Source: Phycisphaerae bacterium (GTDB taxonomy: Bacteria; Planctomycetota; Phycisphaerae; UBA1845). From it: a stretch of 64,000 nt of DNA. The stretch lies in contig JAGFJJ010000046.1 in assembly GCA_024102815.1 (NCBI GenBank), forward strand, positions 124,001 to 188,000, read 5' to 3'. Made by a program: the position numbers and the translations under genes. The notes under the pieces were generated by a model that did not search any database, was not told the DNA's origin, and was given only the letters and a program-made list of their open reading frames with translations. Positions 33,412-59,635 of this stretch are shown here, one piece after another (within the stretch, counting starts at the first letter, position 1; the number at the start of each line of letters is the position of its first letter).

Positions 33412-33847
33412 AGTGTTCGCCGAGTCGCCAAACGGAGTGAAAGCGTGAAGCGTGGCTAAGCATGGAGGCCAGAATCGGCTTTGTGCCGATATGGCGTCGT
33501 CAAGAATCGGTATGCCCACCGCAAGGGTCAACAGGGAAGCGGTCAGTCAGAATTGCGATGTCGGCCCAAACCCCCGATATTCGAAGACTCCCGTACTCGG
33601 GAATCTCAATGGCCGATTCGCGTTGCGGTTCCGCAATGGTCATGAGATAGTACCGTTCCCCGATAAGATCTTAGCCACGATGAAGGCGCTCCAGGTACCG
33701 CAATCCGGGTCCATTGGCATCTCATTTGCATTGCTTCGGCGCAAGAAGCTGGAGCGCGGGGTATCCGCGTGTTGTTCAGGAGCGCAGAGAGTCGCCTTCT
33801 GACGGGCGGGCAGCGGGCGTCTCGTCGTCTTTGTGAGCTGGTGGTTT
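33412..33847. other. Intergenic region, 436 bp, with one weak open frame
   Basis: Between the acyltransferase and the next adaptor gene. A plus-strand frame at 33452-33802 (116 codons) contains PVLGNLNGRFALRFRNGHEIVPFP, which looks more protein-like than its surroundings, but there is no ribosome site of note and I recognise no family. It may be a gene remnant or chance. No RNA gene or terminator was recognised. Confidence 0.35.
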
Positions 33848-34966
33848 ATGGGCAATAGCGACGAATCCCGATCCGCGTTTTCGATCGTCTCGAGGGTCGC
33901 GATCGGCATCCTCTTCGCTATCATTGTCGTGGCACTGCTGCTTTGGCTGGCTGGGACGTTTCAACCGAAGATCGACACGCACACCAATGTGACATCAGCC
34001 GGGGAGGATCGGGCGACTTTGCCTCCCGGTGCGGATTTGGTTGCGGCAAGAACAATCAGTGTCCAGCGCGAGGAACCCTCTGTCGGGACCATTCGGGCCG
34101 TTCATGAGACGACCCTTTCTTCAAAGCTCCTGGCCAAGGTCGTCGAAGTGAGCGTCAAGGCGGGGCAGCGGGTTTCCCGGGGCGACATTCTTGTCCGTCT
34201 CGATGACGCCGATCTTCGCGCCCGTCTCGAACAGGCCCTGGCATCGGCCGGTGCCGCCCGCGCCGCACGTGATCAAGCCAAGATCGAATTCGACCGCGTT
34301 TCGGAGCTGCGCGAGCGAGGTGCGGCGGCGAAAATCGAGTGGGATCGGGTCGACACGGACTTGAAGACCGCAGAAGCCAACTTGGCGCGTGCGGAGCAAG
34401 CCGTCGCGGAGGCGCGCGAGATTCTGAGCTATGCAACGATTGCCGCGCCGATAACGGGCGTTGTAATCGACAAGAAAGTGGAGGCGGGTGATACCGTCTC
34501 GCCGGGACAGCCCCTTGTGACGCTGTTCGACCCAGAACATATGCAGCTCGTGGCCAGCGTTCGGGAATCGTTGACGCGACGACTATCCGTCGGACAGACA
34601 GTCAATGTCGAGATCGATGCCCTCGACCTGCGGTGTCAAGGTCGAATCAGCGAGATCGTGCCCGAGGCCGAGTCGACCAGTCGCACATTCTCGGTGAAGG
34701 TCACCGGTCCCTGTCCGCCGGGCATCTATTCCGGAATGTTCGGCCGCCTGTTGATTCCGCTGGGTGAAGAAGAGGTTCTGGTGATTCCCCAAGCCGCCGT
34801 GCGACGGGTCGGCCAACTCACCACCGTGGATGTAGCTGATAACGGTGCAAAGGAGCGCCGTGCGGTTCAGCTTGGTCGGACGTTTGACCAAGACGTCGAA
34901 GTGCTCTCGGGGCTGCGACCCGGGGAGCAGGTGATTCTGCCTGACGCCGACGGGAGCGCGTCCTAG
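33848..34966 (+). CDS. RND efflux adaptor (membrane fusion protein)
   Basis: A 372-aa periplasmic adaptor with an N-terminal anchor (VAIGILFAIIVVALLLWLAG). The lipoyl halves are VHETTLSSKLLAKVVEVSVKAGQRVSRGDILVRLDD and ATIAAPITGVVIDKKVEAGDTVSPGQPLVTL, flanking a short Ala/Glu/Arg-rich hairpin (about 130-190). Barrel and membrane-proximal domains follow, with the typical VEVLSGLRPGEQVILP ending. The in-frame GTG at 33833 would add five residues; the ATG at 33848 is preferred. Two bases separate its stop from the RND permease start, so the two genes are an operon. No outer-membrane factor is nearby. Confidence 0.9.
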   Translation: MGNSDESRSAFSIVSRVAIGILFAIIVVALLLWLAGTFQPKIDTHTNVTSAGEDRATLPPGADLVAARTISVQREEPSVGTIRAVHETTLSSKLLAKVVEVSVKAGQRVSRGDILVRLDDADLRARLEQALASAGAARAARDQAKIEFDRVSELRERGAAAKIEWDRVDTDLKTAEANLARAEQAVAEAREILSYATIAAPITGVVIDKKVEAGDTVSPGQPLVTLFDPEHMQLVASVRESLTRRLSVGQTVNVEIDALDLRCQGRISEIVPEAESTSRTFSVKVTGPCPPGIYSGMFGRLLIPLGEEEVLVIPQAAVRRVGQLTTVDVADNGAKERRAVQLGRTFDQDVEVLSGLRPGEQVILPDADGSAS

Positions 34967-34968
34967 AC

Positions 34969-37900
34969 ATGGCGGCTTCGGGAGCGACACCTTCGAGCGA
35001 ACGGCACCATGACTTCACCAACGCCGTCGTATCCGCCTTCCTAAATTCCAACCTTTCGCTGATCCTGATTCTCCTGGCCGCCGCCGTCGGATTGACTTCG
35101 CTGTACGTCACACCTCGGGAGGAAGATCCGCAGATCGTCGTTCCGCTGGCAGACGTGTTTGTCAGCTTTCCGGGGCACTCGGCGCGGGAAGTGGAGCAGC
35201 TTGTCGCCACCCCCCTGGAGAAACTCCTCTTCGAGATCGACGGCGTCGAATACGTCTACTCCATGTCGCGGGATGAGCGGGCTGTCATCACCGTTCGCTT
35301 CTACGTCGGAGAAGATCGCGAACGAAGCCTGGTGAAACTCTACAAACGGATGGACGAGAATATCGACATCGTTCCCCCGGGTGTTGCGGGCTGGGTGATC
35401 AAACCGGTCGAAATCGACGACGTGCCCATCGTCACCCTCACCCTGACGAGTGCCACTTCGAGCGATTTCGTCTTGCGCCGAGTCGCCGAGGAGATGGCCC
35501 GGCGACTGGCCGAGGTACCGGATCTCTCTCGAGCCTACGTGATTGGCGGGCGAGGTCGCGTTGTTTACGCTTATCTGGATCTGGACCGGATGCAGGCTTA
35601 CGGACTTGCGCCGCTGGAAATTCGTTCGGCCCTCCAGAGCACCAACGTCTTTGCGGTTTCCGGCGAATTCACCCGGAACGATGAAGTGTTCCAGGTGGCG
35701 GGCGGGATGCCCGTAACGTCATCGCGGGAATTGCCTGAACTCGTAGTCGGCGTACACGACGATCGGCCGGTCTTTCTCAAGGACGTGGCCGATGTCGTCG
35801 ACGGCCCCGACGAGGTCGAAGCTTATGTCCGTCACGCGTGGGGACCGGCGGCAGGTTTCGAGATGCACGCCGGTTCGGCAGGCACGCCGCTCTCGGAATC
35901 GGTGGGAATTTCAGTGGCTGAAGTCCCCCACGCCGCTGTGACCGTCGCTGTGGCCAAGAAGCGGGGCACAAACGCGGTCAACGTGGCCAATGCGGTTCTC
36001 ACTGCGGCGCGTGAGCTCCAACAGCAGATGGTTCCCGACGACATCGACGTCATCGTGACGCGCAACTACGGCCGAACTGCGAACGAGAAGGTCAACGAGC
36101 TCGTCGAAGCGCTTGCTGTGGCGATCGTGATCGTCATTGCGCTGCTCACACTCGGCATGGGCTGGCGGGAAGCGCTGATCGTCGCGCTGGCGGTGCCCGT
36201 GGTCTTCGGGCTTACTCTGACCGTCAATCTACTGCTGGGTTATACGATCAACCGCGTGACGCTGTTTGCATTGATTCTCTCCCTGGGCTTACTGGTCGAC
36301 GACCCCATCGTCGACGTGGAGAACATCTCCCGGCATTTCGTCCTGCGTGGCCGGGCAACGCGCGAGATCGTTCTCGAGGCCGTCGCCGAGATTCGCCCTC
36401 CACTGATCACGGCCACGCTCGCCGTGATCGTCTCCTTCCTGCCGATGTTCTTCATCACAGGCATGATGGGGCCGTATATGCGTCCAATGGCCCTGAACGT
36501 ACCGGTGGCCATGCTTATGTCGATGGTCGTGGCGTTCACCATTACGCCCTGGCTCGCGTTTCACTTCCTGAAGCGCGGCAGACCTGAAGGGCCCGGCGAA
36601 GGCGAATCGGAGTCTGATCCGCACGACATCGGAAAAATCAGGAATACGGCGCTGTACCGCTTCTTCTATCCGCTCATGGCGCCATTGCTTCGCTCGCGAG
36701 CTGCCTCGTGGGGTTTCCTGGGCGTCATCGCCCTTCTGACGGCACTCGCAGCCATGCTGGCTGCGACACGGCATGTGCCGCTGAAGATGCTCCCGTTCGA
36801 CAACAAGAACGAGTTGCTTCTCGTGCTGGACTTCGACGAGGGGACCACCCTGGAGCGGAGCGATGCCGCGGTTAGGTCGTTTGAGTCCTTTCTGGCAAGT
36901 GTGCCGGAGGTCGCCGACTTTGTCTCCTACGTCGGCGTTGCTTCGCCCATGGATTTCAATGGAATGGTTCGCCATTACTACTTGCGAAAGGGCCCCAACG
37001 TTGCGGAGATCCGTATCAACCTTGTCGGCAAGAAGAACCGGCGTGACCAGAGCCATGGGATTGCCCTGCGAATACGCGATCCGCTTACTGATATCGCCAG
37101 CGCACATGGTGCAAGTCTCAAGATCGTCGAGACGCCTCCGGGACCTCCCGTGATTGCGAGCGTTGTCGCAGAAGTGTATGGCCGGCCGGATCACACCTAT
37201 GAGCAGATCATCAGCGCCGCTCACACGGTGCGGACGCGTCTGGCGAAGGAACCCGGGGTCGTTGACGTAGACGATTCCGTTGAAGCGGACTGGACGAGGC
37301 TGACCTTCGTGCCCGACCAGGAAAAAGCCGCCATCAACGGCGTCAGCGTAGAGGACATTGTTGAGTCGCTTCGGCTCTGCCTGGAGGGCGCAGAGGCCGG
37401 GATCGTGCACGACCCGTGGGAACGCCAGCCGCTGATGATCGAACTGCGCCTGCCGCGTTCCTTGCGGTCCAGTCGCTGGGACTTGGGCCAGATTCGCGTG
37501 AAAGGGCGAGGAGGGAATCTCGTCGCGCTGGCCGAACTCGGGCGTTGGGAAGAGTCGCGTGTCGCCAAGACGATTTACCACAAGAATCTTCAGCGCGTTG
37601 TCTACGTGTTCGCGGAGACGGCGGGACGGCCCCCGGCCGATGTCGTCGTCGATGTGCTGGCCGACCAAACGAGAGAGCCGCCACAAAATACCGGGACAGC
37701 TGACGCCGGCGGGGTCGAACAAGCGCAGCCGCTTTCCGTCGACAGGCGTACGTTCTTTGATTCCGGAGGAGGGATCGCCTGGTGGATTCCTGGGGGATTC
37801 CGCGCTGACTTCTCGGGCGAGGGCGAATGGAAGATCACGCTCGATGTCTTCCGCGATCTGGGCCTGGCTTTCGGCGCGGCCCTTGTCGGCATCTACGTTC

Positions 37901-38388
37901 TGCTCGTGGCGCAGACAGGCTCATTCATGATTCCGGTCGTGGTCATGCTGGCCATCCCGCTGAGCATCCTCGGTATCATGCCCGGATTCTGGCTGCTCAA
38001 TGCGCTTGCCGGCGGGCAGATCGGTGCGTACGCCGATCCCGTGTTTTTCACAGCCACAGGTATGATCGGCATGATCGCCCTCGCCGGCATCGTCACCCGC
38101 GACGCGATCATCCTCGTCGACTTCATTCATCTTTCGATGGCCCGCGGGCGGACGCTCTTCGACGCGATCATGGAAAGTCGGGTCGTGCGTTTGCGCCCCA
38201 TTCTGCTCACCGCCGGCACGGCCATGCTTTCGGCTGCCCCGATCACGATCGATCCCATTTTCTCGGGTCTGGCCTGGTCGCTCATCTTCGGCCTGTTCGC
38301 GTCCACGGTCTTCACGCTGTTCGTGATTCCAGTGGCCTATTGGTTGCTGCATGCTTCCCCCGACGACCGGGCAAATGCGAGCAGATAG
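34969..38388 (+). CDS. RND efflux permease, AcrB superfamily
   Basis: A 1139-aa RND pump subunit, about 100 residues longer than AcrB. It starts with a cytoplasmic N-terminus and TM1 ([19 protein letters not shown]), then the [36 protein letters not shown] block characteristic of a subfamily distinct from the 27083-30205 pump. TM4 carries [19 protein letters not shown] with the Asp-Asp proton relay. The extra length is mainly a loop after TM6 ([17 protein letters not shown]) and a long second porter loop. C-terminal TM10 has [17 protein letters not shown] with Arg-Asp in place of the common Asn-Asn. It pairs with the adaptor 2 bp upstream. Substrate unknown. Confidence 0.88.
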   Translation: [1139 protein letters not shown]

Positions 38389-38738
38389 ACCAACTGAGCC
38401 GCGTCAGGTCTGACGCTTCCTCACGCCGCCGAGAGGAATGGCAAGGATCGCGCAGGACAATCCCGTCAAGGGAGCGTCGCTCTCCTCTCGACGATTACGC
38501 ACCATTCACCCAGATTTCATCGCGATCTCAGGCGGCCTGCGTAATTAAGAATCGACCACGATGGTTGATGGTGTCATACTCAAGGGACGAACACCTTTTG
38601 AATCCGTGGCCCGTGGTCCGATGTGGTCGGGCGCGACTGGTACTTAAAAGGCTGCGCAGACTGAGTTTTTCGGATTCGCGAGGCAAGAGATAGCCCACTT
38701 GATACGTTGGCAACCTTGCGCTTCGCATAGATCACTCC
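38389..38738. other. Intergenic region, 350 bp
   Basis: Between the RND permease and the S2P-type protease gene, both on the plus strand. It probably carries the protease promoter. I see no conserved ORF, RNA gene, repeat or clear terminator in it. Confidence 0.4.
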
Positions 38739-39908
38739 ATGTTTGGAAAGAGCGTCAAGCTATTCACGCTATTCGGGTTCCCGGTGCGGGCGGACATTAG
38801 CTGGCTGCTGGTCGTGCTCCTGCTGAGCTGGTCGCTGGCCCAGGGTCTGTTTCCGACGACGCACCCCGGACTGTCCCAAGCCCAGTACTGGACCATGGGT
38901 GTTGTCGCCACGGTCGGCCTGTTTGTCTCGATTGTTCTACACGAGTTCGGTCACTCCCTGGTCGCGCGCCGTCACGGCATGCCCATGAAGGGAATTACGC
39001 TCTTTATATTCGGTGGCGTAGCGGAAATGCAGGATGAACCTCCCAGCCCAAGAGCCGAGTTCCAAGTGGCCGTCGCCGGACCGATCGTCAGCGTCATTAT
39101 CGGCGCACTGTGCATAGGCATTGCCTCGTCCGGCAGCCTCTTCCATTGGCCGCGGGCCGTGACCGGTGTGCTGGGATACGTCGGATTCATGAACGTTATC
39201 CTCGTTGTGTTTAATCTTGTTCCGGCGTTTCCATTGGATGGCGGGCGCGTGCTGCGTTCCGCCCTCTGGCAATGGAAGAAGAATCTGCGAAGAGCGACGC
39301 GCATCACATCCAACATTGGAATGATCTTCGGTCTCACGCTGGTGGTCCTGGGCTTGTTAAGCATTGTGACCGGCAACTTCATCGGCGGCTTGTGGTGGGT
39401 CCTAATCGGGCTGTTCCTTCGGGGCGCCGCGCAATTGTCCTACCGGCAACTGCTGGTTCGGCGCGCACTGGAAGGGGAAGCGGTTCGCCAGTTCATGTCG
39501 ACGGAGCCGATTACCGTTTCCCCCACCACAAGCCTGAAGGATGTTGTGGAGAACTATATCTATCGTTACCACCACCGCATGTTCCCCGTGACGCAGAACG
39601 GTAAGCTCGTGGGGTGCATATCATCGCGCGAGGTTCGCGATATTCCACAACAGCAGTGGGACCAGAAGGCCGTGCAGGAGCTGGTACGCCCTTGCAGCGA
39701 GGATAACACGATGTCACCGGACCTGGATGCCGTGAAGGCACTGGGAAGAATGCGGCGCGACGGCAATTCGAGGTTCATGGTGGTAGACGATGGACGACTT
39801 GTCGGGATTCTTTCGCTCAAAGATCTGCTCAAGTTCCTTTCACTGAAGATGGAGCTCGAAGAGGATGTGCCGCCGCGCCTCGCCGGATTGGGGTCGCAAC
39901 CAGAGTAA
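38739..39908 (+). CDS. Site-2-protease-type intramembrane metalloprotease with CBS pair (Rip/SpoIVFB-like)
   Basis: A 389-aa membrane zinc protease that would cleave substrates inside the lipid bilayer. The zinc motif is HEFGH (H68-E69-H72) in a transmembrane segment. The third ligand region is FNLVPAFPLDGGRVLRS, with D167. About six hydrophobic segments occupy residues 1-230. Residues about 245-375 form a tandem CBS pair (FMSTEPITVSPTTSLKDVV; RFMVVDDGRLVGILSLKDLL), a nucleotide-sensing module common in group III S2Ps. The gene begins at an ATG without a strong ribosome site. It lies just upstream of the encapsulin pair. The substrate is unknown; anti-sigma factors or transporters are typical. 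Confidence 0.88.
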   Translation: MFGKSVKLFTLFGFPVRADISWLLVVLLLSWSLAQGLFPTTHPGLSQAQYWTMGVVATVGLFVSIVLHEFGHSLVARRHGMPMKGITLFIFGGVAEMQDEPPSPRAEFQVAVAGPIVSVIIGALCIGIASSGSLFHWPRAVTGVLGYVGFMNVILVVFNLVPAFPLDGGRVLRSALWQWKKNLRRATRITSNIGMIFGLTLVVLGLLSIVTGNFIGGLWWVLIGLFLRGAAQLSYRQLLVRRALEGEAVRQFMSTEPITVSPTTSLKDVVENYIYRYHHRMFPVTQNGKLVGCISSREVRDIPQQQWDQKAVQELVRPCSEDNTMSPDLDAVKALGRMRRDGNSRFMVVDDGRLVGILSLKDLLKFLSLKMELEEDVPPRLAGLGSQPE

Positions 39909-39974
39909 GTACGTTGTGATCGGCAAGGAGCCGCTGCGAAATACCGCTTAGGGCGTTGAGAAGAAAGGCATGAC

Positions 39975-40343
39975 ATGGCTTCGCAATATCATGAACCAGT
40001 TGATGAATTGTCGCCCGACGCTCGAGACCTCCACCGGGCACTGTCCAGCCTGATGGAAGAGATCGAGGCCATCGACTGGTACAACCAGCGGGCGGATGTC
40101 TGCGAGGATGACCACCTGAGGGAAATCCTGTTACACAATCGAGATGAGGAGATGGAACACGCTGCAATGGCGCTGGAGTGGCTTCGCCGGCGCATGCCGG
40201 AGATTGATGAAAAGCTCAGGACTTACTTGTTCACTTCGCAACCGATCACCGAACTGGAAGACAACGCCGAGGACAACGGGGCGACTGCAGGCAAAGGCCT
40301 GCATACCGTCGGAGACCTCGGCCTGCGTAGACTCAGCGGATAG
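39975..40343 (+). CDS. Encapsulated ferritin-like protein (EncFtn)
   Basis: A 122-aa two-helix ferritin-like protein that oxidises Fe(II) inside an encapsulin shell. Known ferroxidase residues of the family are all present with a 3-residue offset: E29 (SLMEEIEAIDWY), W35, Y36, E59 and H62 (DEEMEHA). After the helices comes a flexible linker and a C-terminal cargo tag, HTVGDLGLRRLSG, resembling the LTVGSL-type loading peptides. The ATG at 39975 follows AGAAAGG by 6 nt. The shell gene begins about 11 bp after its stop, so this is a classic cargo-shell pair. Iron storage and detoxification is the expected role. Confidence 0.92.
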   Translation: MASQYHEPVDELSPDARDLHRALSSLMEEIEAIDWYNQRADVCEDDHLREILLHNRDEEMEHAAMALEWLRRRMPEIDEKLRTYLFTSQPITELEDNAEDNGATAGKGLHTVGDLGLRRLSG

Positions 40344-40354
40344 GGAAGCACAAA

Positions 40355-41173
40355 TTGAGCAACATGATGACAGATTGGCACCGACGAACGCTTGCCCCTT
40401 TGACACCCGAGGCATGGAATGAGGTTGATTCCACGGCGCGACGTATACTCACGAGCCAGCTTTCCGCTCGGCGGCTGGTAGACTTCGATGGACCACATCA
40501 GCCGTTGATGGGCGCAGCCAATTCCGGTCGCCTGGAGATTTCGAAGACAGAAGGACCGGGTGGGGTCCCCTGGGGGCTGCGCAAGGTGGAGCCGCTGGTC
40601 GAACTCCGTATTCCCTTCGTCGTGAATCAGATGGAGCTCGATAACATTACGCGTGGTTGCCGCAACCCCGATCTGAGTGCCCTGGAGAAGGCTGCCGGAA
40701 AACTGGTCCGTTTTGAAGAAACGGCCATTTATCACGGCTTCGAAGCCGGCGGCATCCAGGGAATCACTCCGAGCTCTTCGCACGATGCGGTGCCCTTGCC
40801 TTCCGACGCCGGAGCATTGACGCAGAGCGTGGCCGAAGGCGTGAGGACATTGAGGGTATCCGGGATAGGTGGCCCATACGCGCTCGTCTTGGGCGGTGAA
40901 CCCTTTTTTGCCCTGATGCAAGCGGGCACAACCGGGTATCCACCTATTCGCATCATCCGGAATACGCTTGGCGGTGAAGTGCTCTGGAGCCCGGCGCTGC
41001 AAGGCGGCGTTCTTCTTTCCACGCGAGGCGGCGACTTTGAGCTCGTCGTCGGTGAGGACATTTCGATCGGATACGCCATGCACGACCGCGACAAAGTCGA
41101 GCTTTATCTTGCCGAATCATTCACCTTTCGTGTTCATGAACCCGCCGCCGCGCTCGCTCTGCAATCGGCATGA
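40355..41173 (+). CDS. Family 1 encapsulin shell protein
   Basis: A 272-aa HK97-fold shell protein (linocin M18/bacteriocin family) that self-assembles into a protein nanocompartment. Hallmarks are the N-terminal helix region HRRTLAPLTPEAWNEVD and ARRILTSQLSARRLVDFDGP (which normally contacts cargo peptides), the VPWGLRKVEPLVELRIPFVV E-loop region, ALEKAAGKLVRFEETAIYHG, and VGEDISIGYAMHDRDKVELYLAESFTFRV at the C-terminus. A TTG at 40355 is 6 nt after AGGGAAG and is taken as the start. ATGs at 40364 or 40367 would fit the usual short N-terminus just as well. It is co-transcribed with the EncFtn cargo gene. Confidence 0.92.
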   Translation: MSNMMTDWHRRTLAPLTPEAWNEVDSTARRILTSQLSARRLVDFDGPHQPLMGAANSGRLEISKTEGPGGVPWGLRKVEPLVELRIPFVVNQMELDNITRGCRNPDLSALEKAAGKLVRFEETAIYHGFEAGGIQGITPSSSHDAVPLPSDAGALTQSVAEGVRTLRVSGIGGPYALVLGGEPFFALMQAGTTGYPPIRIIRNTLGGEVLWSPALQGGVLLSTRGGDFELVVGEDISIGYAMHDRDKVELYLAESFTFRVHEPAAALALQSA

Positions 41174-41248
41174 CGGACTCTGATGTTGCTGTTCCTTGGG
41201 TTCATGCTGTGCTTGTGATCCGCGGCGCCGGGACAGGAGTCCCTATCA

Positions 41249-42031
41249 GTGCCGGAATTGCCTGACGTCGCTGTCTTCGGTCAGTACATTAACGCGACAG
41301 CGCTGCATCGCAACATCGTGCGCGCAACGGCCAGTGATGCTCGCGTCGTCATGGGCGACTCCCTCAAGGCCCTTCAGCGAAAGCTGAAAGCGGACGCGCT
41401 GGATTCCACGGCGCGACATGGCAAGTATCTTGGGGTTCGGCTCGCAAGTGGTCGTTGCCTCGTCCTGCATTTCGGGATGACCGGCAACATTAAATACCTC
41501 AAAGTCAACGGAGATCCGCCCAAGTACAGCAAGCTGGTTCTCCAATTCGAGGACCACTACCAACTGGCCTATATCAACAAGCGCCGACTTGGCCGAATAC
41601 AACTGGTAGAAGACTGGGACGCGTTTCTCGGGGGAGCCTCTCTCGGCCCAGACGCACTCCAGATAAAGAAGAGTGACTTCATCCAGTTACTCACGGTGGG
41701 GAAGGGATCGGTCAAGACTCGCCTGATGAATCAGAATGTACTGGCTGGACTGGGAAATGTCTATACCGATGAGACCTTATTCCAGTCCGGGATACACCCA
41801 GCCACGCATGTCAGTCGGATCACCCGCGCAAGAGCCTCGGACATCTGGCGTACCATGCGACACGTCTTGCGGACTGCGATTGATCGGAAGGCAGATCCCA
41901 ATTCCCTGCCCGATTCCTGGTTGACACCACAACGCGGCGAAAACCAGTGTCCGTGCTGCAAGGGAAAGTTACGTCGCACGAAAGTCAGCGGCCGAACGTC
42001 GGTATTCTGCCCGCACTGCCAGCACAAATAG
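41249..42031 (+). CDS. Formamidopyrimidine-DNA glycosylase family protein (Fpg/Nei)
   Basis: A 260-aa base-excision repair enzyme that removes oxidised purines or pyrimidines and nicks the DNA. The mature N-terminus PELPD supplies catalytic Pro1 and Glu2; the usual second glutamate of PELPE is Asp here. The beta-loop lysine is in the ARHGKYLGV segment. The helix-two-turn-helix is in TRLMNQNVLAGLGNVYTDETLF, and the C-terminal zinc finger is C-x2-C...C-x2-C (CPCCKGK...FCPHCQHK). Translation starts at GTG 41249 after AGGAG, 75 bp beyond the encapsulin stop. It fits an oxidative-damage theme with the neighbouring iron-storage genes, but a shared operon is not proven. Confidence 0.88.
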   Translation: MPELPDVAVFGQYINATALHRNIVRATASDARVVMGDSLKALQRKLKADALDSTARHGKYLGVRLASGRCLVLHFGMTGNIKYLKVNGDPPKYSKLVLQFEDHYQLAYINKRRLGRIQLVEDWDAFLGGASLGPDALQIKKSDFIQLLTVGKGSVKTRLMNQNVLAGLGNVYTDETLFQSGIHPATHVSRITRARASDIWRTMRHVLRTAIDRKADPNSLPDSWLTPQRGENQCPCCKGKLRRTKVSGRTSVFCPHCQHK

Positions 42032-50705: not shown

Positions 50706-51368
50706 ATGCAAATGCCGGCAGTCTTTTCTCCCCGTGCCAATCTCTTGATGCGAGCGGCGATCGTCGCGCTGCTGATCGCCCCGATGGCGGCAGCAACCGG
50801 GCTGTATGCCTGGTATCATTCACCGTATGGCACGGGCATCGGCCAGGCAGTCCCACAGGACATTCCGTTCAGCCACGCCCATCACGTGGGCGGCCTAGGG
50901 CTAGACTGCCGCTACTGCCATAAGACGGCGGAGTCGAGTGCGTTCGCGGGGATGCCCGCGACGGATACCTGCATGCACTGTCACTGGCAGCTTTGGACCG
51001 AGGCTCCCATGCTGGAGCCGCTGCGCGAGAGCTGGCGAACAGGCTCCCGCTTGGAATGGACCCGTGTTCATCGGCTACCAGACTTTGTTTTTTTCGACCA
51101 TTCCATTCACGTGAACAAGGGAGTCGGGTGCTCGACCTGTCATGGTCGGGTCGATCAGATGCCGCTGATGCGCAAGGCAGAAACGCTGCACATGAAATGG
51201 TGCCTCGATTGTCATCGTGATCCAGCGCCGCGGATTCGACCCGCCGATGAAATCTACAGTGTCGATTACGCGTTTCCGTCCGATGCACGTGCGCAGGGGA
51301 AGCGGCTGATGAAATACTACGGAATCGATACGACCGGTCTGACCAACTGCACGGCATGCCATCGCTGA
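50706..51368 (+). CDS. actA: Alternative complex III subunit A, pentaheme cytochrome c
   Basis: A 220-aa periplasmic cytochrome that hands electrons from alternative complex III (quinol:electron acceptor oxidoreductase) to downstream carriers. A single anchor helix (about 15-32) precedes five C-x2-CH heme sites at C68 (CRYCH), C89 (CMHCH), C142 (CSTCH), C166 (CLDCH) and C215 (CTACH), matching the five hemes of the purified complex subunit. It heads an uninterrupted operon running to at least 62181; the gap to actB is 11 bp. Two in-frame ATGs (50706 and 50712) are nearly equivalent starts. Confidence 0.93.
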   Translation: MQMPAVFSPRANLLMRAAIVALLIAPMAAATGLYAWYHSPYGTGIGQAVPQDIPFSHAHHVGGLGLDCRYCHKTAESSAFAGMPATDTCMHCHWQLWTEAPMLEPLRESWRTGSRLEWTRVHRLPDFVFFDHSIHVNKGVGCSTCHGRVDQMPLMRKAETLHMKWCLDCHRDPAPRIRPADEIYSVDYAFPSDARAQGKRLMKYYGIDTTGLTNCTACHR

Positions 51369-51379
51369 GGACGACGTAG

Positions 51380-54300
51380 ATGAAAATACACCCTCTTGCT
51401 TACAATCGCGAGACCGGCCGGGACTACTGGCGCAGCTTGGACGAACTTGCGGACAACGCCGAGTTTCGGCACTGGATCGAACAGGAGTTTCCGGGGGGGC
51501 TGGATCAGCTCAATACTCCGTCACGTCGCCATTTCCTCAAGATCATGGCCGCGTCCTTCGCCCTGGCAGGTTGGTCGGGATGTGAGCGTGCTCCTGAAGA
51601 CGAACTGGTCCCGTACGTGCGCGAGCCGCGCGGGATGACGCCCGGTCGCCCCTTGACCTTCGCAACGGCACTGACGCGATCGGGTTACGCATGTGGCGTG
51701 CACGTAACCAGTTACGAAGGGCGGCCCACGAAGATAGAGGGTAATCCCCGGCATCCCGCGAGTCTGGGCGCGACGGATGTCTTCGCGCAAGCCGAGATTC
51801 TCTCTTTTTGGGATCCTGACCGCTCCCGTGCCGTGGTCGGGCCCAACGGAATTGCGTCCTGGTCCGGCTTTCTGCGGGAGCTTCAGGCCCGGCTCGTGCA
51901 GCATGGTGCGCATGCCGGCCACGGTATGCGGTTACTGACGGGAAACATCACTTCGCCGACAAGGTTAGCGCTTATCGAATCGCTGCTCAAGAGGTTTCCC
52001 GAGATGCGCTGGCATGTGCATGATCCGCTGGCAGACCACAATGAATCTTCAGCGATCAGACAGGTGCTGGGGCGCCCGGCGAGGTTGATTCATGATCTTT
52101 CCTCGGCCGAGCGAATCTTGTCGGTCGATTGCAATTTCCTTTTCGATCTGCCCGGAAGTGTTCGCTATGCCCGTGACTTTGCCAGCAAACGGAAGATCGA
52201 CACCGAACAGGCCGCATCACAAGAAATGAATCGCCTGTACGTGGCGGAGGTCACGCCGACGACTACAGGCGCCAAGGCAGATCATCGCCTGCGAACCCAT
52301 CCATCGTTGCTAGCGCCGTTTGTTGAAGCGCTCGCCGTCGAACTCGGCGTCGAGGAAGGCAACCGGAATCAAGCAGACCGGCTAGATGCGAAAACACGGA
52401 CTTCTGTGCAGGCAACCGCGCGAGACCTCGCCACTTTTCCAAAACGGAGTGTTGTTCTCATCGGCCGGGGCCAGCCGCCTCGATCACACGCGCTCGGCCT
52501 CGCAATCAATGAGAAGCTTGATGCGTTCGGCAAGACGGTACGGCTCATCCCTCCGCTCTGCGCCGCGGGAAACGATGCTCCCGAATCTTTGAATGAACTC
52601 GCCCAGGACATGGCCGCTGGGGACGTCGAAACCTTGCTGATGATTGACGTCAATCCGGCCTATAGCGCTCCACAGAACCTGGCATTTCCCGAACACCTGA
52701 AGAAGGTGGAATTCGCCGTTCATATGGGGTTGCACGCGAACGAGACGGCGGAACATTGTCGTTGGCACATTCCGCTTGCGCACGAACTCGAATCCTGGGA
52801 CGACGCCCGGGCATTCGACGGTACGGTTACAATTCTCCAGCCGCTGATCGCCCCTCTCTACAGGGGCCGCACGGCCAATGAACTGCTGGCCAATCTCGTG
52901 GGAGAGACATTGTTCGATGCGAAAGATCTCGTACGGCAGCGGTGGCGCCGGGAAGTACCCGAAGGGGACTTTGAGGACTGGTGGCACGACGCGCTGAAAG
53001 ATGGCGTTATTCCCGACTCGGCATCTCTCCCGCTTGATGCGCGGATCGATGTCGGACGGGGAATTGCACAACCCGAGTCGCTGGATTCGCATCCGAGCGA
53101 TACGACGGACGGCGGACTAGAGCTTGTTCTACTGCCAGGTTCTCGCATGTGGGACGGCCGATACGCGAACAATGCCTGGTTGCAGGAACTCCCCGATCCC
53201 GTGACAGGAGTAACTTGGGACAACGCCGCACTGATCAGCCCCTCGACGGCCGGGCGATTCGCACTGAAGACTGGCGACGTAGTCGCCATTCGATGCGCAG
53301 AAGTCGAGGTCGAAGCTCCTGTGTTCGTGCTTCCCGGCCAGGCGGATGATGTCCTCAGCTTGGCACTCGGGTATGGGCGCAGTGCCGGTGGACCAGTCGC
53401 GCAGGGAGTCGGCGTCAACGCGTACCCCCTTCGCACGGCGGAGACGACGTGGCACAGAAAAGGCGTCTCCATCCAGAAGACGGGGCGTACGCAAGTACTG
53501 GCCCAAACGCAGAATCATCATGTGATGGAGGGGCGCGACCTCTTGCGCCGAGGATTGCTCTCTGAGTTCCGGTCCGACCCATGGCAGCTGGCACACGAGG
53601 GCGGCCGTAAGCCAGCTCCCCTCGTGTCGCTGTATCCCCCACACTCTTATCCCGGCCAACAATGGGGCATGTCCATCGACCTGACGAGTTGTATCGGATG
53701 CGGAGCCTGCACCATCGCGTGCCAGGCGGAGAACAACATCGCGGTTGTCGGACGTGAACAGGTGCATCTGGGGCGAGAGATGCACTGGATTCGCGTCGAT
53801 CGCTACTTCGCAGGACAGCCCGAAGACCCTGCCATCCTCCACCAGCCGGTGCCGTGCATGCATTGCGAAGACGCCCCCTGCGAGCTCGTATGCCCGGTGG
53901 GGGCCACTCAGCATAGTCACGACGGCCTCAACGAGATGATCTACAACCGCTGCATCGGGACGCGATACTGTTCGAATAACTGTCCATACAAAGTCCGACG
54001 ATTCAACTTTTACCGCTACACGGAATACGACAGTGAGACGAGAAAACTTCAGCGCAACCCGGAGGTAACCGTACGCGCTAGAGGCGTGATGGAGAAGTGC
54101 ACCTATTGCGTGCAACGGATTCGCAACGCCGAGATTGACGCCCGAAAAGAGAATCGTCAGATCAGCGACGGTGGCATTGTTACGGCTTGCCAACAGGCAT
54201 GTCCAACGCAAGCAATCGTGTTCGGCGACATCAACGACAAAGCAACGGCCGTTTCGCAGGCAAAGCAGCAGGGACACTCCTACGCAATGCTGCGTGAGCT

Positions 54301-54412
54301 CAATGTTCGGCCGCGCACGACATATCTCGCCGAGATCCGCAATCCCAATCCCGCGCTAGCTTCCTCCGGCGACGCCCGTGCGGAGCGCAGCGGTACGGCT
54401 GGGAATTCATAG
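51380..54412 (+). CDS. actB: Alternative complex III subunit B, iron-sulfur protein with degenerate molybdopterin-type domain
   Basis: A 1010-aa protein exported by Tat: an N-terminal stretch of about 45 residues precedes SRRHFLKIMAASFALAG. Residues about 60-740 resemble the molybdopterin oxidoreductase fold but serve as a scaffold in this family, without cofactor. From about residue 760 a ferredoxin-like domain has four cysteine clusters: CIGCGACTIAC, CMHCEDAPCELVC, CIGTRYCSNNC and CTYC...CQQACPTQA. These hold the complex's 4Fe-4S and 3Fe-4S centres. The subunit passes electrons between the quinol-oxidising membrane subunit and ActA. It lies between actA and the actCD fusion; stop and next start are 20 bp apart. 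Confidence 0.94.
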   Translation: MKIHPLAYNRETGRDYWRSLDELADNAEFRHWIEQEFPGGLDQLNTPSRRHFLKIMAASFALAGWSGCERAPEDELVPYVREPRGMTPGRPLTFATALTRSGYACGVHVTSYEGRPTKIEGNPRHPASLGATDVFAQAEILSFWDPDRSRAVVGPNGIASWSGFLRELQARLVQHGAHAGHGMRLLTGNITSPTRLALIESLLKRFPEMRWHVHDPLADHNESSAIRQVLGRPARLIHDLSSAERILSVDCNFLFDLPGSVRYARDFASKRKIDTEQAASQEMNRLYVAEVTPTTTGAKADHRLRTHPSLLAPFVEALAVELGVEEGNRNQADRLDAKTRTSVQATARDLATFPKRSVVLIGRGQPPRSHALGLAINEKLDAFGKTVRLIPPLCAAGNDAPESLNELAQDMAAGDVETLLMIDVNPAYSAPQNLAFPEHLKKVEFAVHMGLHANETAEHCRWHIPLAHELESWDDARAFDGTVTILQPLIAPLYRGRTANELLANLVGETLFDAKDLVRQRWRREVPEGDFEDWWHDALKDGVIPDSASLPLDARIDVGRGIAQPESLDSHPSDTTDGGLELVLLPGSRMWDGRYANNAWLQELPDPVTGVTWDNAALISPSTAGRFALKTGDVVAIRCAEVEVEAPVFVLPGQADDVLSLALGYGRSAGGPVAQGVGVNAYPLRTAETTWHRKGVSIQKTGRTQVLAQTQNHHVMEGRDLLRRGLLSEFRSDPWQLAHEGGRKPAPLVSLYPPHSYPGQQWGMSIDLTSCIGCGACTIACQAENNIAVVGREQVHLGREMHWIRVDRYFAGQPEDPAILHQPVPCMHCEDAPCELVCPVGATQHSHDGLNEMIYNRCIGTRYCSNNCPYKVRRFNFYRYTEYDSETRKLQRNPEVTVRARGVMEKCTYCVQRIRNAEIDARKENRQISDGGIVTACQQACPTQAIVFGDINDKATAVSQAKQQGHSYAMLRELNVRPRTTYLAEIRNPNPALASSGDARAERSGTAGNS

Positions 54413-54431
54413 GCGAGGACGCGGGGCGAAC

Positions 54432-56417
54432 ATGGGAGCCAGTCCAGCAAATGTCGGCACGACGCAAGTCATCGATCCCAAGTACGGCTTGGGGTCAGTA
54501 ACCGACCACGTCGTTGACATCCCCCTACAACCGCAATTCGCCAAGTGGTGGTTAGCGGCGACAGGGATTGCCCTGTCCGTGACATTGATGGGGCTCGTCT
54601 CCGCACTGTGGCTCCTGTACTGGGGACCGGGCGTATGGGGAATCAACATCCCCGTGGCCTGGGGATTTGCGATCCTCAATTTTGTCTGGTGGATCGGCAT
54701 CGGACATGCCGGGACATTGATCTCGGCCATTCTTCTGCTCTTCCGTCAGAGATGGCGCACGAGCATTAATCGCTTTGCTGAGGCGATGACCTTGTTCGCC
54801 GTTATGAACGCCGGCCTGTTTCCCCTCATGCACTTGGGACGATTCTGGAAGTTCTACTACCTGGTACCGTATCCCGACACCATGGGCTTATGGCCCCAAT
54901 GGCGCAGCCCGCTGGTGTGGGATGTCATCGCGGTTCTGACCTACGCGACCGTATCTCTCATCTTCTGGTATGTCGGGTTGATTCCGGATCTGGCGACTCT
55001 GCGCGATACCGCGAAGCGCAAATGGACACGTCGCATTGCAGGCATTTTTGCGCTCGGGTGGCGTGGTGCAGCCAGACACTGGCAGAATCATCAGGTCGCC
55101 TATCTCCTGCTCGCCGGACTCGCCACGCCCCTGGTGATTTCGGTGCACAGTATCGTGTCTCTCGACTTTGCCACCGCCTTCGTGCCGGGCTGGCATACGA
55201 CGATCTTCCCGCCCTATTTCGTCGCGGGTGCTATCTTCTCCGGCTTCTCGATGGTTTTGACGCTCATTATTCCGGCCAGGCCACTCTTCGGGCTGAAGGG
55301 GTTGATCACAACGCGGCATCTGGACGTAATGGCCAAAGTCATGCTCACGTCGGGGCTGATCGTCGGCTATGGATACATCATCGATAACTTCACGTGCTTC
55401 TTCAGCGCTGATCGGTTCGAAATGTACATGGCGCGCGATCGCATGCTCGGCGCCTACGCCCCCGTCTATTGGGCGACATTGACCTGCAACGTGCTCATCC
55501 CTCAACTACTCTGGATTCGCTGGGTCCGTACCCGCGCCATTCCACTGTTCTTGGTTTCGCTGGCAATCAACGTCGGAATGTGGACTGAACGCTACATGAT
55601 TGTCATTCAGCCACTGCATCGCGACTTCATGCCCAGCGCCTGGGGTTGGTTCTCCGCAACTTTCTGGGACTGGTCGCTGTTCATCGGAACACTTGGTCTC
55701 TTCTGCCTGGCCATGCTGCTATTCGTTCGTATTATTCCCATGCTGTCCATGTCAGAACTTCGAGAGCTTTTGCATGGCGTGAAGGGAGCGCGGCCCGACT
55801 CAGAGACGCCAGTGTCGCAGACATTCTCGGCTACATCTTCCCGCAAGAGCGACTCTCTGGATGTCGCGCGACTTTATGGGATCTGCGGCGTCTTCCGGGA
55901 GCCGGAGTCGTTGTTAAAGGCGGTCAAGAGCGCGCGCGCCAAAGGGTATCGTCGTCTGGATACATTCACGCCTTTCCCCGTGGACGACCTTCCTGACGCG
56001 CTGGGATTAAGGCGCAGTCCAGTAGCCTTGCTTGTTTTAGTGGGCGGCCTCTTCGGTGCCATTGGCACTTTCGCGACGGAGGCATACGCAGCCGTATTCG
56101 ATTACCCCTGGAATATCGGCGGACGGCCATACTTCAGTTGGCCGTCCTTCATACCACTGACCTTTGAATTGGGCGTGCTGGGTGGCGCCTTGTTCGGGTT
56201 CGTTGGCATGATTCTGCTCAACGGACTACCCAAACTCTATGATCCCATATTCAACGCAAGAGGATTTGAGCGTGCCTCGCGAGACCGCTTCTTCCTGCTA
56301 GTCCAACAGGACGACCCGCAATTCGATCGCGACCGTGTGGAGCAGGATTTGTCCGCATGGAGTGCGCTCGACATCTTGCCCGTCCCTAAGGACTTCCAAG
56401 GCGAGGATACCGCGTGA
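54432..56417 (+). CDS. actC: Fused alternative complex III subunits C and D
   Basis: A 661-aa membrane protein. Residues 1 to about 450 are ActC, an NrfD-like subunit with about ten transmembrane helices that oxidises quinol (RFWKFYYLVPYPDTMGLWPQW; VLIPQLLWIRW; SLAINVGMWTERYMIVIQPLHRD). After a linker (about 452-475, ARPDSETPVSQTF) the sequence becomes ActD (DUF3341): LYGICGVFREPESLLKAV, GYRRLDTFTPFPVDDL, then two helices and ILLNGLPKLYDPIFN. In most operons actC and actD are separate genes; here they are one continuous frame. The ATG at 54432 with an upstream GAGGACGCGGGG site was chosen over 54378. The stop overlaps actE (GTGA). Confidence 0.92.
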   Translation: MGASPANVGTTQVIDPKYGLGSVTDHVVDIPLQPQFAKWWLAATGIALSVTLMGLVSALWLLYWGPGVWGINIPVAWGFAILNFVWWIGIGHAGTLISAILLLFRQRWRTSINRFAEAMTLFAVMNAGLFPLMHLGRFWKFYYLVPYPDTMGLWPQWRSPLVWDVIAVLTYATVSLIFWYVGLIPDLATLRDTAKRKWTRRIAGIFALGWRGAARHWQNHQVAYLLLAGLATPLVISVHSIVSLDFATAFVPGWHTTIFPPYFVAGAIFSGFSMVLTLIIPARPLFGLKGLITTRHLDVMAKVMLTSGLIVGYGYIIDNFTCFFSADRFEMYMARDRMLGAYAPVYWATLTCNVLIPQLLWIRWVRTRAIPLFLVSLAINVGMWTERYMIVIQPLHRDFMPSAWGWFSATFWDWSLFIGTLGLFCLAMLLFVRIIPMLSMSELRELLHGVKGARPDSETPVSQTFSATSSRKSDSLDVARLYGICGVFREPESLLKAVKSARAKGYRRLDTFTPFPVDDLPDALGLRRSPVALLVLVGGLFGAIGTFATEAYAAVFDYPWNIGGRPYFSWPSFIPLTFELGVLGGALFGFVGMILLNGLPKLYDPIFNARGFERASRDRFFLLVQQDDPQFDRDRVEQDLSAWSALDILPVPKDFQGEDTA

Positions 56418-57025
56418 GTTGCCAAGGCACAATCATAGTCGGTTCCCTTGCGGTGATGCTGGTCAGTGCTGGCTGCGATTACCAGGTTAATATGGCCAAG
56501 CAACCGCGGACAAGGACGCTTCAAGCATGCCCGGTGTTTCCGGACGGCGCATCGGCTCGACCACTCGTCGAAGGCGTCGTGAACACAGAAGGAGAGATGT
56601 TTTCGTTTTCCGTAACTTCGCCCCCGCCACCGCAGCCACCCCTTACCATGGCACTCTTGCAACGCGGACAGCAGGTCTTCAATGTGTCCTGCAAACCATG
56701 TCATGGCGCGGCGGGATACGGCGATGGCATGGTTGTCCAACGCGGCTACCCCCGCCCCCCTTCATACCATACGGCGCGGCTGCGCGACAAACCTGATGAC
56801 TACATCTTTCAAGTGATCACCGACGGGCTCGGGAAAATGCCTCCATATCTAGACCAGGTACCCTCTGCCCCCGATCGATGGGCTGTCGTCGCCTACGTTC
56901 GAGCGCTTCAACTCAGCCAACACGCCCCGGTCGGCATCGTTTCACCGTCAATTCACTTCGACGCACGGCGAGAAGAAGATGTGGCACCTATTGCGCCCCA
57001 AGCGTCAACGGAGGGCGCCCATTGA
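56414..57025 (+). CDS. actE: Alternative complex III subunit E, monoheme cytochrome c lipoprotein
   Basis: A 203-aa periplasmic cytochrome. Translation starts at GTG inside the actCD stop (GTGA). The signal peptide ends in a lipobox (LVSAGC), so the protein is probably lipid-anchored. The single heme site is CKPCH (C93-H97) followed by GAAGYGDGMVVQRGYPRPPSY, a layout shared by ActE proteins. The probable axial methionine is in GLGKMPPY. Its last codons overlap the TTG start of actF. Confidence 0.92.
   Translation: MSCQGTIIVGSLAVMLVSAGCDYQVNMAKQPRTRTLQACPVFPDGASARPLVEGVVNTEGEMFSFSVTSPPPPQPPLTMALLQRGQQVFNVSCKPCHGAAGYGDGMVVQRGYPRPPSYHTARLRDKPDDYIFQVITDGLGKMPPYLDQVPSAPDRWAVVAYVRALQLSQHAPVGIVSPSIHFDARREEDVAPIAPQASTEGAH
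57010..57015 (+). promoter_or_regulatory. Ribosome binding site supporting the TTG start of actF
   Basis: GGAGGG lies 6 nt before the TTG at 57022. With the TTGA stop/start overlap it settles the start of actF within the long open frame that begins at 56878. Confidence 0.7.
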
Positions 57026-58161
57026 ATAACGCAAACGATCACAACTACGCATCGGCCTTGACGCAACGGCTGATGTTCACTGGCATTGCTGGAATGGCGC
57101 TGGCCATCGGGATCGGCCTCGCTCGGCCGAGTGCATTCTATTTTGGATACTTATGCGGCTTCCTGCTCTGGATAGGTGTCCCGCTGGGCGGTGCCGGCCT
57201 CCTGATGATACATCACCTAACCGGCGGTCGGTGGGGTTGGAGCATACGCCAGATGTTGGAAGCCGCGACGGCGTCGCTTCCCCTGATTGTTCTTGCCTTT
57301 ATTCCAATCGCACTTGGCGTACGATTGCTGTATCCTTGGGTCGCACATGGCTTTCCGAACAAGCCGGACTTCGCATTTCGCGCCTGGTACCTGCAGGAAG
57401 GATTTTTCTTTGGGCGTGCGATCGTCTTCATCAGTCTCTGGGTCGTTGGAGGAGTCGTTCTACTATTTCTGACCAGGAGGGCGGCCCAATGTCGTGCTGG
57501 CGGGAGCGGTGCCCTCCAGGCGCTCTCGGCCTTGGGACTTATCCTCTATTTTCTTACCGTTAGCTTTGCCAGCATTGATTGGATACTGACTCTCGAACCG
57601 GCCTTCTATTCGAGCGTTTTTGGCTTGTATGTCATTCTGGGCCAGGCCTTGACGGCCCTGGCCGTGTTTATCGTCCTCGCCCTCACCCTGCCGTGTCCCC
57701 ATGGCGCCGAGCCCCTACCTCCTGCACAGCTTAATGACTTAGGTACGCTCCTTCTGACTTTTGTGGTACTGCATACGTACATGGCCTACTCCCAGTTTTT
57801 CATCATCTGGAACGGCAATCTTCCCGACCACGGCGCCTGGTACGCTCCACGAATGACGGGCTTCTGGGCGTTGGTATCAATCGCCCTGATCGTCCTGCAC
57901 TTTCTGCTGCCATTATTCGCCTTGCTATTTCGGACAGTGAAAAAAAACCCCCGGAGACTGCTGATGATTGCGTGTGTTGTGCTCTTCGCACGCACACTTG
58001 ACTCTGCCTGGATGGTGCTCCCGTCGGCCCACGGATCCTGGCTGGCGATTGTTGAGGCCGTCCTGGCAATGATCGGCGTCGGCGGTATATGGCTATCCGT
58101 CGTGGTGTGGCTTTGGAGCCGTTCGCCCGCTATGGCCACCGCGCGGGAGGTGGCGGAATGA
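57022..58161 (+). CDS. actF: Alternative complex III subunit F (NrfD-like membrane subunit)
   Basis: A 379-aa membrane protein with about ten helices, the second and smaller NrfD-type quinol subunit. Family features include FGYLCGFLLWIGVPLGGAGLLMIHHLTGGRWG near the N-terminus, the conserved FRAWYLQEGFFFGRAIVF, SFASIDWILTLEPAFYSSVFGLY, and TYMAYSQFFIIWNGNLPD. The start is TTG 57022 within a TTGA overlap with actE. The ribosome site is GGAGGG. The stop overlaps the next gene by ATGA. Confidence 0.9.
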   Translation: MNNANDHNYASALTQRLMFTGIAGMALAIGIGLARPSAFYFGYLCGFLLWIGVPLGGAGLLMIHHLTGGRWGWSIRQMLEAATASLPLIVLAFIPIALGVRLLYPWVAHGFPNKPDFAFRAWYLQEGFFFGRAIVFISLWVVGGVVLLFLTRRAAQCRAGGSGALQALSALGLILYFLTVSFASIDWILTLEPAFYSSVFGLYVILGQALTALAVFIVLALTLPCPHGAEPLPPAQLNDLGTLLLTFVVLHTYMAYSQFFIIWNGNLPDHGAWYAPRMTGFWALVSIALIVLHFLLPLFALLFRTVKKNPRRLLMIACVVLFARTLDSAWMVLPSAHGSWLAIVEAVLAMIGVGGIWLSVVVWLWSRSPAMATAREVAE

Positions 58162-58589
58162 CCACCCCGGGGAACGAGCAAGGTACGGTTGCGAAGCATG
58201 CACCAAACACTCCCAATACCCCCGCCATCTGGCTGGCTATTGCGGGCTTTTTCATCGTGCTCGGCCTCGTGAGCGCCGGTGTGCTGCGTGTCCTCGGCAG
58301 ATTCCAGTCCGCCCATCCGGAGGTCCCCCAGCCGATCGTCGTACCGGCGACAGACCGGCCGATATCGCCCTGGGATGACCCTCCGGGCGATTTAGCCCGT
58401 AACTTACGGTTGCAGCAAACCCGGTTGAATAGTTACCGTTGGATCGACAAGAAGCACGGGATCGTGCAAATTCCAATCGACCAGGCCATGCAACTGGCTG
58501 CGAAACGCGGATGGGAGCGCGTTATAACCGAACTCTACGATACTGGCTTCGCTGAAAACAGCGACGGCGGAAGAACTGGATCACGATAA
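58158..58589 (+). CDS. Small anchored protein between the act and cox genes
   Basis: A 143-aa protein with one N-terminal helix (AIWLAIAGFFIVLGLVSAGVL). Its soluble tail has a block LNSYRWIDKKHGIVQIPIDQAMQLAAKRGW, which recurs in small proteins of act/cox operons and is the only recognisable family mark. It may be an assembly or linking subunit joining alternative complex III to the oxidase; that is inference from position. Its start overlaps actF by ATGA and its stop overlaps coxB by TAATG. Confidence 0.75.
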   Translation: MTTPGNEQGTVAKHAPNTPNTPAIWLAIAGFFIVLGLVSAGVLRVLGRFQSAHPEVPQPIVVPATDRPISPWDDPPGDLARNLRLQQTRLNSYRWIDKKHGIVQIPIDQAMQLAAKRGWERVITELYDTGFAENSDGGRTGSR

Positions 58590-59635
58590 TGCGCATCGCA
58601 GGAGTCACAGGCTTTCTTGCTGAAGTGAACACCGATCTTCTGAGCTGGTTTGACTGGATGCTGCCCGAGCGCGCAGCCGAAGGGGCTCGAGAAGTGGATG
58701 CCGTCTTCCTCAGCCTGATCGCTATGGCGCTGTTCTTTGTACTCCTTGTCGGCCTCCTGATTCTCCGGTTCTCCATCAAGTACCGTGCTGGTTCCAGGGC
58801 AGACCGCAGCGGACGCGTCCAAAAAACCTGGCGGTGGGAAGTCACGTGGACGATCATTCCAGGCCTGATCGGGCTGGCCATATTTATCTGGTCCGGGTGG
58901 GTGTTCTTCGACGTGACGCAGCCTCCCCGCAACGCTCGTACGATCTACGTTGTGGGCAAGCAGTGGATGTGGAAGATCCAGCATCCCGACGGACCGGAGG
59001 AGATCAACGAATTGCACCTGGCCCGCGGGCAGCCGGTCAAGCTTCTTCTCCGGTCCCAGGACGTCATACACAGCTTCTATATACCTGCATTTCGCGTGAA
59101 GCAGGACGCCCTTCCAGGACGCTACACGTCGATGTGGTTCACGCCGAATAAGACCGGCGCCTTCCATCTTTTCTGCGCTGAATATTGCGGGACAGAGCAC
59201 TCGCAAATGCGCGGAACTGTATATGTAATGGAGCCTGAGGCTTTTCAACTGTGGCGCAGCAGCGCGTCGCCGAAAGACAAGGCACCCAATATGCCCGGAA
59301 CTCCAGGTGCGCCGCTTGCGATCACCGGACAAGGAACCTTCTTTGATTTCGGCTGCAACGCATGCCATACGCCGTCCGCCCGCGTGATCGCCCCACAACT
59401 GGACGGTCTCTTCGGTCAGCAGATCCGCTTGCGCGATGGCTCGCTTATTACTGCCGACGAACAGTACATTCGCGAGTCCATTCTCGATCCGAACGCAAAG
59501 ATCGCGGCGGGCTACGCCTACCCGTCGCTCATGCCGACCTACAAGGGACAGATCTCCGAAAGCGAGATGCGCGATCTGATCCAATTCATCCAGGACCTCC
59601 GCGATGGCTGGCCGGGAAAAGGAGAAACACCATGA
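58589..59635 (+). CDS. coxB: Cytochrome c oxidase subunit II fused to cytochrome c (caa3 type)
   Basis: A 348-aa subunit that receives electrons and passes them to subunit I. Two N-terminal helices (around 37-61 and 86-108) are followed by the cupredoxin domain with the dinuclear CuA site [12 protein letters not shown] (C196, C200, H204, M207; the other histidine is in DVIHSFYIP). A C-terminal cytochrome c domain carries CNACH (C256-H260) with the axial Met in the PSLMPTYKG segment. The fused heme domain defines caa3-type oxidases. It starts at TAATG and overlaps coxA by ATGA. Confidence 0.94.

What the first reader, a model, noticed from the sequence alone, without database searches (positions are those of the whole stretch)
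38739..41173. Encapsulin iron nanocompartment beside a CBS-gated intramembrane protease
EncFtn keeps all known ferroxidase residues and a C-terminal loading tag, and the shell gene follows at once, giving a complete iron-storage compartment. The S2P-CBS protease directly upstream on the same strand raises the question of whether proteolytic signalling controls it.
Basis: partly seen in the sequence, partly recalled or inferred. Interest (0 to 1): 0.5.

Follow-up and report, generated by a model that had tools for sequence, protein, structure and literature searches.

The report
Ordinary encapsulin iron compartment, chance neighbour
This stretch of bacterial DNA carries a standard two-gene iron-storage capsule, and the membrane protease gene next to it sits beside such capsules nowhere else we looked, so the idea that the protease controls the capsule is probably wrong.

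Summary
An S2P-CBS protease gene (38739-39908), an EncFtn gene (39975-40343) and a Family 1 encapsulin shell gene (40367-41173; longest frame from 40355) lie in that order on the + strand. EncFtn passes curated cut-offs, keeps every metal-binding residue of the Rhodospirillum rubrum structure and ends in a loading-tag-like tail. This pair is an ordinary encapsulated-ferritin system.

The implied protease link is not supported. The EncFtn-shell pair is shared with 8 of 9 same-class genomes with a strong EncFtn match. No M50 protease lies in 91 related EncFtn loci, 29 of them shell-bearing with room for an upstream gene. The only same-family relative with the compartment has no protease-domain match. 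The 24 nearest S2P-CBS loci hold no EncFtn or shell; in one (L243) S2P is followed after 24 nt by an Fpg gene, which in the window lies just beyond the shell. The simplest reading is a two-gene cassette placed in a shuffled stress and metal-handling region.

One result leans the other way: across 396 class genomes, S2P-CBS and ferritin-type encapsulins co-occur more than expected (7 of 11 against 21 of 385), but these 7 genomes fall in four families.

The parts
38739..39908 (+). S2P (M50) intramembrane protease with two C-terminal CBS domains; HEFGH at residues 68-72, NLVPAFPLDGG at 159-169. Neighbour, not shown to belong to the compartment
   Evidence: Pfam; motifs; nearest solved relatives MJ0392 S2P 3b4r E 7.5e-26 and SpoIVFB 8vjl
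39975..40343 (+). EncFtn, encapsulated ferritin-like ferroxidase, 122 aa
   Evidence: PF22277, TIGR04535 above cut-offs; PDB 7oe2 E 9.5e-36; ligands conserved
40317..40334 (+). Probable encapsulin loading tag LGLRRL (residues 115-120) in the EncFtn tail
   Evidence: Position and resemblance to LGIGSL/LNIGSM tails of shell-linked homologues; consensus from PMC11202242 passages. The V/I position is Leu
40367..41173 (+). Family 1 encapsulin shell protein, 268 aa (longest frame from TTG 40355, 272 aa)
   Evidence: PF04454, NF041155 above cut-offs; closest solved shell Haliangium ochraceum 7odw E 2e-67
41249..42031 (+). Fpg/MutM-type DNA glycosylase, 75 nt downstream of the shell; neighbour
   Evidence: Fapy_DNA_glyco and H2TH above cut-offs; a similar gene (41% identity) directly follows S2P in L243

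Best explanation
An ordinary encapsulated-ferritin system. EncFtn, presumably a decamer as in its solved relatives, oxidises Fe2+ at two-fold ferroxidase sites; its C-terminal tag docks it inside the Family 1 shell, which holds the oxidised iron. EncFtn and shell genes are almost certainly co-transcribed (gap about 23 nt). The S2P-CBS protease upstream and the Fpg downstream are neighbours in a variable stress and metal-handling region; the protease is not part of the compartment and probably does not control it. Shown here: gene identities, residues, tail, conserved two-gene order, absence of the protease from related loci. Inferred: assembly, iron loading, co-transcription, lack of regulation.
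For: Family models and PDB relatives. Tail length separates shell-linked EncFtn (108-141 aa, 32 of 32 rows, L109 and L185 being one locus) from EncFtn with no shell downstream (89-100 aa, 51 of 51 with room), counted over 83 of 92 rows, lengths from the start of the match; the window's is 122. Two-gene order in 8 of 9 same-class genomes other than the window's with EncFtn at E < 1e-20 (exception G516). No M50 match in 91 EncFtn loci, 29 of 31 shell-bearing ones having at least 1300 bases upstream; the profile recovered the 33 fetched S2P loci L139-L171 as control (31 sequences, most of them the training set). No EncFtn, shell or second-type system in 24 S2P-CBS loci. L243: S2P then Fpg after 24 nt with nothing between. 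G682, the only other of 51 family genomes with a shell, matches the window S2P only in the CBS part (residues 202-371).
Against: S2P-CBS (E < 1e-80) occurs in 7 of 11 class genomes with a shell-linked ferritin-like gene against 21 of 385 others (Fisher p 1.1e-6, own genome left out). The 7 come from four families (f113 three, f111 two, f105, f119), so kinship may explain it. The S2P-EncFtn gap is only 66 nt on one strand, with no recognised promoter between, so read-through from S2P in this genome is possible. The tag departs from consensus at one position.
Confidence: 0.88

Rival explanations
1. A lineage-specific stress operon: S2P, EncFtn, shell and Fpg are transcribed together here (gaps 66, about 23 and 75 nt) and respond to the same oxidative or metal stress, without the protease acting on the compartment.
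For: Same strand and short gaps; no terminator-like site in the gaps on the + strand; S2P followed by Fpg and a P-type ATPase in L243; the wider window holds RND efflux, CBS, Trk and SpoIIAA-like genes.
Against: The four-gene order was seen in no other genome: no Fpg in 91 EncFtn loci, and Fpg beside S2P in 1 of 24 S2P loci, with two further partial or distant Fpg matches (L233, L235).
Confidence: 0.35
2. Regulated intramembrane proteolysis by this S2P-CBS controls the compartment, for example by releasing a regulator in response to nucleotides sensed by the CBS domains.
For: Adjacency; catalytic motifs intact; genome-level co-occurrence. A site-2 protease can act on iron genes: E. coli RseP cleaves FecR (PMC8144685, title and start of abstract in the listing).
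Against: Order not conserved; the same-family compartment genome G682 has no protease-domain match to this S2P; no anti-sigma or membrane regulator was found beside the genes among the neighbours scanned.
Confidence: 0.06
3. The EncFtn works without the shell, like the short tagless EncFtn proteins.
For: The nearest homologues by identity (60-69%) are mostly tagless and have no shell nearby; the tag departs from consensus.
Against: Length 122 aa with a tail falls in the shell-linked group; shell gene adjacent; TIGR04535 above cut-off.
Confidence: 0.04

Closest known systems
Haliangium ochraceum EncFtn-encapsulin (7oe2, 7odw)
   Same: Both proteins have their best PDB match here (E 9.5e-36 and 2e-67)
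   Different: Flanking genes not compared; tag differs in detail
Rhodospirillum rubrum EncFtn (5da5)
   Same: Aligned without gaps, all metal ligands kept
   Different: Tail beyond residue 105 not aligned in 5da5
Short EncFtn-like proteins such as Nitrosomonas europaea NE0167 (3k6c)
   Same: Same ferritin-like fold family (E 1.2e-31)
   Different: Those lack tail and tag (PMC11202242 passages); no shell gene downstream in 51 of 51 testable loci
S2P-CBS intramembrane proteases: MJ0392 (3b4r), B. subtilis SpoIVFB (8vjl)
   Same: M50 core and CBS module
   Different: Substrate unknown; not linked by synteny to any other EncFtn locus examined

Membership tests
EncFtn (encapsulated ferritin, FLP-TP class) | Curated EncFtn models above cut-off | tested here: met
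   PF22277 140.1/27; TIGR04535 149.7/125
EncFtn (encapsulated ferritin, FLP-TP class) | Ferroxidase ligands Glu32, Glu62, His65, Tyr39 and entry site Glu31, Glu34 | tested here: met
   E29, E59, H62, Y36, E28, E31
EncFtn (encapsulated ferritin, FLP-TP class) | C-terminal loading tag L(F)-x-V(I)-x-x-L(I) | tested here: inconclusive
   LGLRRL at the right place, Leu at the V/I position
EncFtn (encapsulated ferritin, FLP-TP class) | Decamer with ferroxidase activity | not testable with these tools
   Needs protein
Family 1 encapsulin | Curated shell models above cut-off | tested here: met
   PF04454 256.3/24.3; NF041155 265.7/100
Family 1 encapsulin | Cargo gene beside the shell gene | tested here: met
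   EncFtn directly upstream
Family 1 encapsulin | Assembly into an icosahedral shell | not testable with these tools
   Needs protein; no structure was predicted
S2P-CBS intramembrane protease | HExxH and the DG motif, M50 model, CBS pair | tested here: met
   0 of 91 EncFtn loci with an M50 match; 0 of 24 S2P loci with EncFtn or shell

The most novel reading that the evidence does not exclude
In this class S2P-CBS proteases and ferritin-type encapsulins belong to one dispersed stress programme: they co-occur across genomes without being neighbours, and in the window genome the two became one transcription unit, so proteolytic or CBS-sensed energy signalling and iron storage are linked.
Probability: 0.07. 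Interest if true: 0.45.

Novelty: new member of a known kind. Interest (0 to 1): 0.15.

Why it matters
It adds an EncFtn compartment in a Planctomycetota-type genome and removes a tempting but unsupported regulatory link. The contrast between tailed, shell-linked EncFtn and short, shell-less EncFtn across 83 rows is a clean illustration of a known split.

Tried and rejected
Protease link by conserved order: rejected. A single S2P tblastn match in L077 covers only CBS residues 233-368 and lies about 6.9 kb away on the other strand; not counted as an M50 protease. Other conserved neighbours of the pair: the flanks of 15 loci were listed (output cut in the middle); those visible carry unlike genes (names read by eye, not searched), so no recurrent partner was claimed.

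Recent transfer by composition: G+C over 38001-42000 is 0.58, within the window's range 0.557-0.618, so no support. Direct repeats flanking a cassette: only short chance-like repeats, none framing the pair. Promoters: none found by the sigma-70 scan, 1.2 expected by chance, so uninformative. Shared history: the shell tree leaves the window unresolved beside G413, G682, G665 and the Glassbacteria row; the S2P tree places the window weakly (80/71 and 84/85) and has long branches (G665, G503); neither tree decides. A tag regular expression caught 15 of 32 shell-linked tails and 0 of 51 others; it is too strict, so length was used instead. Co-occurrence was first computed with EncFtn hits alone (4 of 9 without own genome, p 0.002), then with shell-linked hits including the second ferritin-like type (7 of 11); the second grouping was chosen after seeing the loci. 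Genome G287, which has S2P-CBS and a second-type shell (L020), was left out of the count because the search missed it.

Full report
What is there. On the + strand: HlyD-like (33833-34966) and RND transporter (34969-38388), then after 350 nt S2P-CBS (38739-39908), after 66 nt EncFtn (39975-40343), after 23 nt the shell (ATG 40367-41173; the longest frame starts at TTG 40355), after 75 nt Fpg (41249-42031). Pfam and NCBIfam identify S2P-CBS, EncFtn, shell, Fpg and RND; the HlyD label is by eye. The window lies at G000 C46:124001-188000 of a 5.09 Mb assembly of 79 contigs.

Organism. The assembly is unnamed. Its family includes G682. G682 and the genome of L109 give the same S2P match at the same coordinates (C213:23339-23860, E 3.5e-5), and contig lengths agree (14258). 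L109 is titled a Planctomycetota bacterium. So the window very probably belongs to Planctomycetota.

The compartment. EncFtn aligns best to solved H. ochraceum EncFtn and without gaps to R. rubrum EncFtn. Every ligand named in the passages I read of PMC5012862 is kept. Its 22-residue end, NGATAGKGLHTVGDLGLRRLSG, carries LGLRRL where shell-linked homologues carry LGIGSL, LNIGSM and similar. PMC11202242 (passages) describes tailed EncFtn with a targeting peptide and short forms without. My sample shows the same split: of 92 rows, 9 were dropped for lack of downstream sequence; of the other 83, the 32 with a shell measure 108-141 aa and the 51 without measure 89-100 aa, counted from the start of the match (L109 and L185 are one locus counted twice there). 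The window measures 122. The genome also holds two ordinary ferritin-family matches (PF00210, C69 and C7), so the compartment is not its only possible iron store.

Is the protease part of it? In the class search (397 genomes), 10 including the window's have an EncFtn match at E < 1e-20; of the other 9, 8 have the shell directly downstream and one (G516) does not. None of the 8 has S2P upstream. Over 91 distinct loci with an EncFtn tblastn match (79 of the 80 loci, L109 being left out as the same as L185, plus the 12), 31 have a shell next to it and 29 of these have at least 1300 bases upstream; a profile built from 31 S2P sequences found no M50 protease in any of the 91. As a check it recovered the 33 loci L139-L171, most of them its training set, but not the RseP-type loci L134-L135 nor L136, so it sees this S2P group and not all M50 proteins. 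The shell occurs in 2 of 51 family genomes, the window's and G682; G682 matches the window S2P only over CBS residues.

From the other side. S2P-CBS at E < 1e-80 occurs in 29 of 397 class genomes including the window's. I looked at 24 of the 28 others. None of the 24 stretches holds EncFtn, shell, or the second ferritin-like/shell type found in L122-L124; some stretches are short because contigs end. Four genomes with EncFtn and shell (G426, G455, G503, G665) carry S2P-CBS on a different contig. In L243 (G493) S2P is followed after 24 nt by Fpg (41% identity to the window's) and then a P-type ATPase. In the window the EncFtn-shell pair lies between these two kinds of gene. This is what insertion of a two-gene cassette into an S2P-Fpg arrangement would look like, though one such locus cannot tell insertion in the window lineage from loss elsewhere or from independent shuffling. 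Around other S2P-CBS loci recur PRC-barrel, CBS, baeRF, lactate dehydrogenase, pyridine nucleotide-disulphide reductase and polymerase-beta-type genes, a loosely shuffled set that I read as stress-related (inference).

Result against my reading. Of 396 class genomes without the window's, 11 have a ferritin-like gene found with a shell verified beside it; 7 of these 11 carry S2P-CBS against 21 of the other 385 (p 1.1e-6). The 7 fall in four families, relatives are not independent, the grouping was chosen after the loci were seen, and the shell model itself was not searched over the class. With EncFtn-type hits alone it is 4 of 9 (p 0.002), three of them in one family.

Literature. No paper in the held library contains both 'encapsulin' and 'site-2 protease', and none of the 8 papers listed contains 'intramembrane protease'. 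In PMC8346489 (passages only) the words protease and peptidase do not occur in the main text.

Verdict. A genuine, ordinary EncFtn-encapsulin pair; the protease beside it is most likely an accidental neighbour in a variable region.

Noticed in passing
L122 465-1704, L123, L124 1441-2616: A second ferritin-like/encapsulin type in the same class: about 120-126 aa rubrerythrin-like cargo with a tag-like end beside a shell only about 24% identical to the window's.
   Followed up: partly
L243 459-3583: S2P-CBS, Fpg and a P-type ATPase with a His-rich start in one tight same-strand run.
   Followed up: partly
L033 10001-10315: EncFtn 66% identical to the window's, 100 aa, no tag and no shell within 10 kb, in a record titled Rhodopirellula sp..
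   Followed up: no
window 50706-61906: Cytochrome c, Fe-S protein, NrfD/ActD and COX1/COX3 genes, consistent with an alternative complex III plus oxidase cluster.
   Followed up: no
window 12111-16886: 1591 aa open frame whose only Pfam match is the MopE-type putative metal-binding motif.
   Followed up: no
window 8362-11727 (-): 1121 aa protein with Ig and Kelch-type repeats and a C-terminal dockerin.
   Followed up: no
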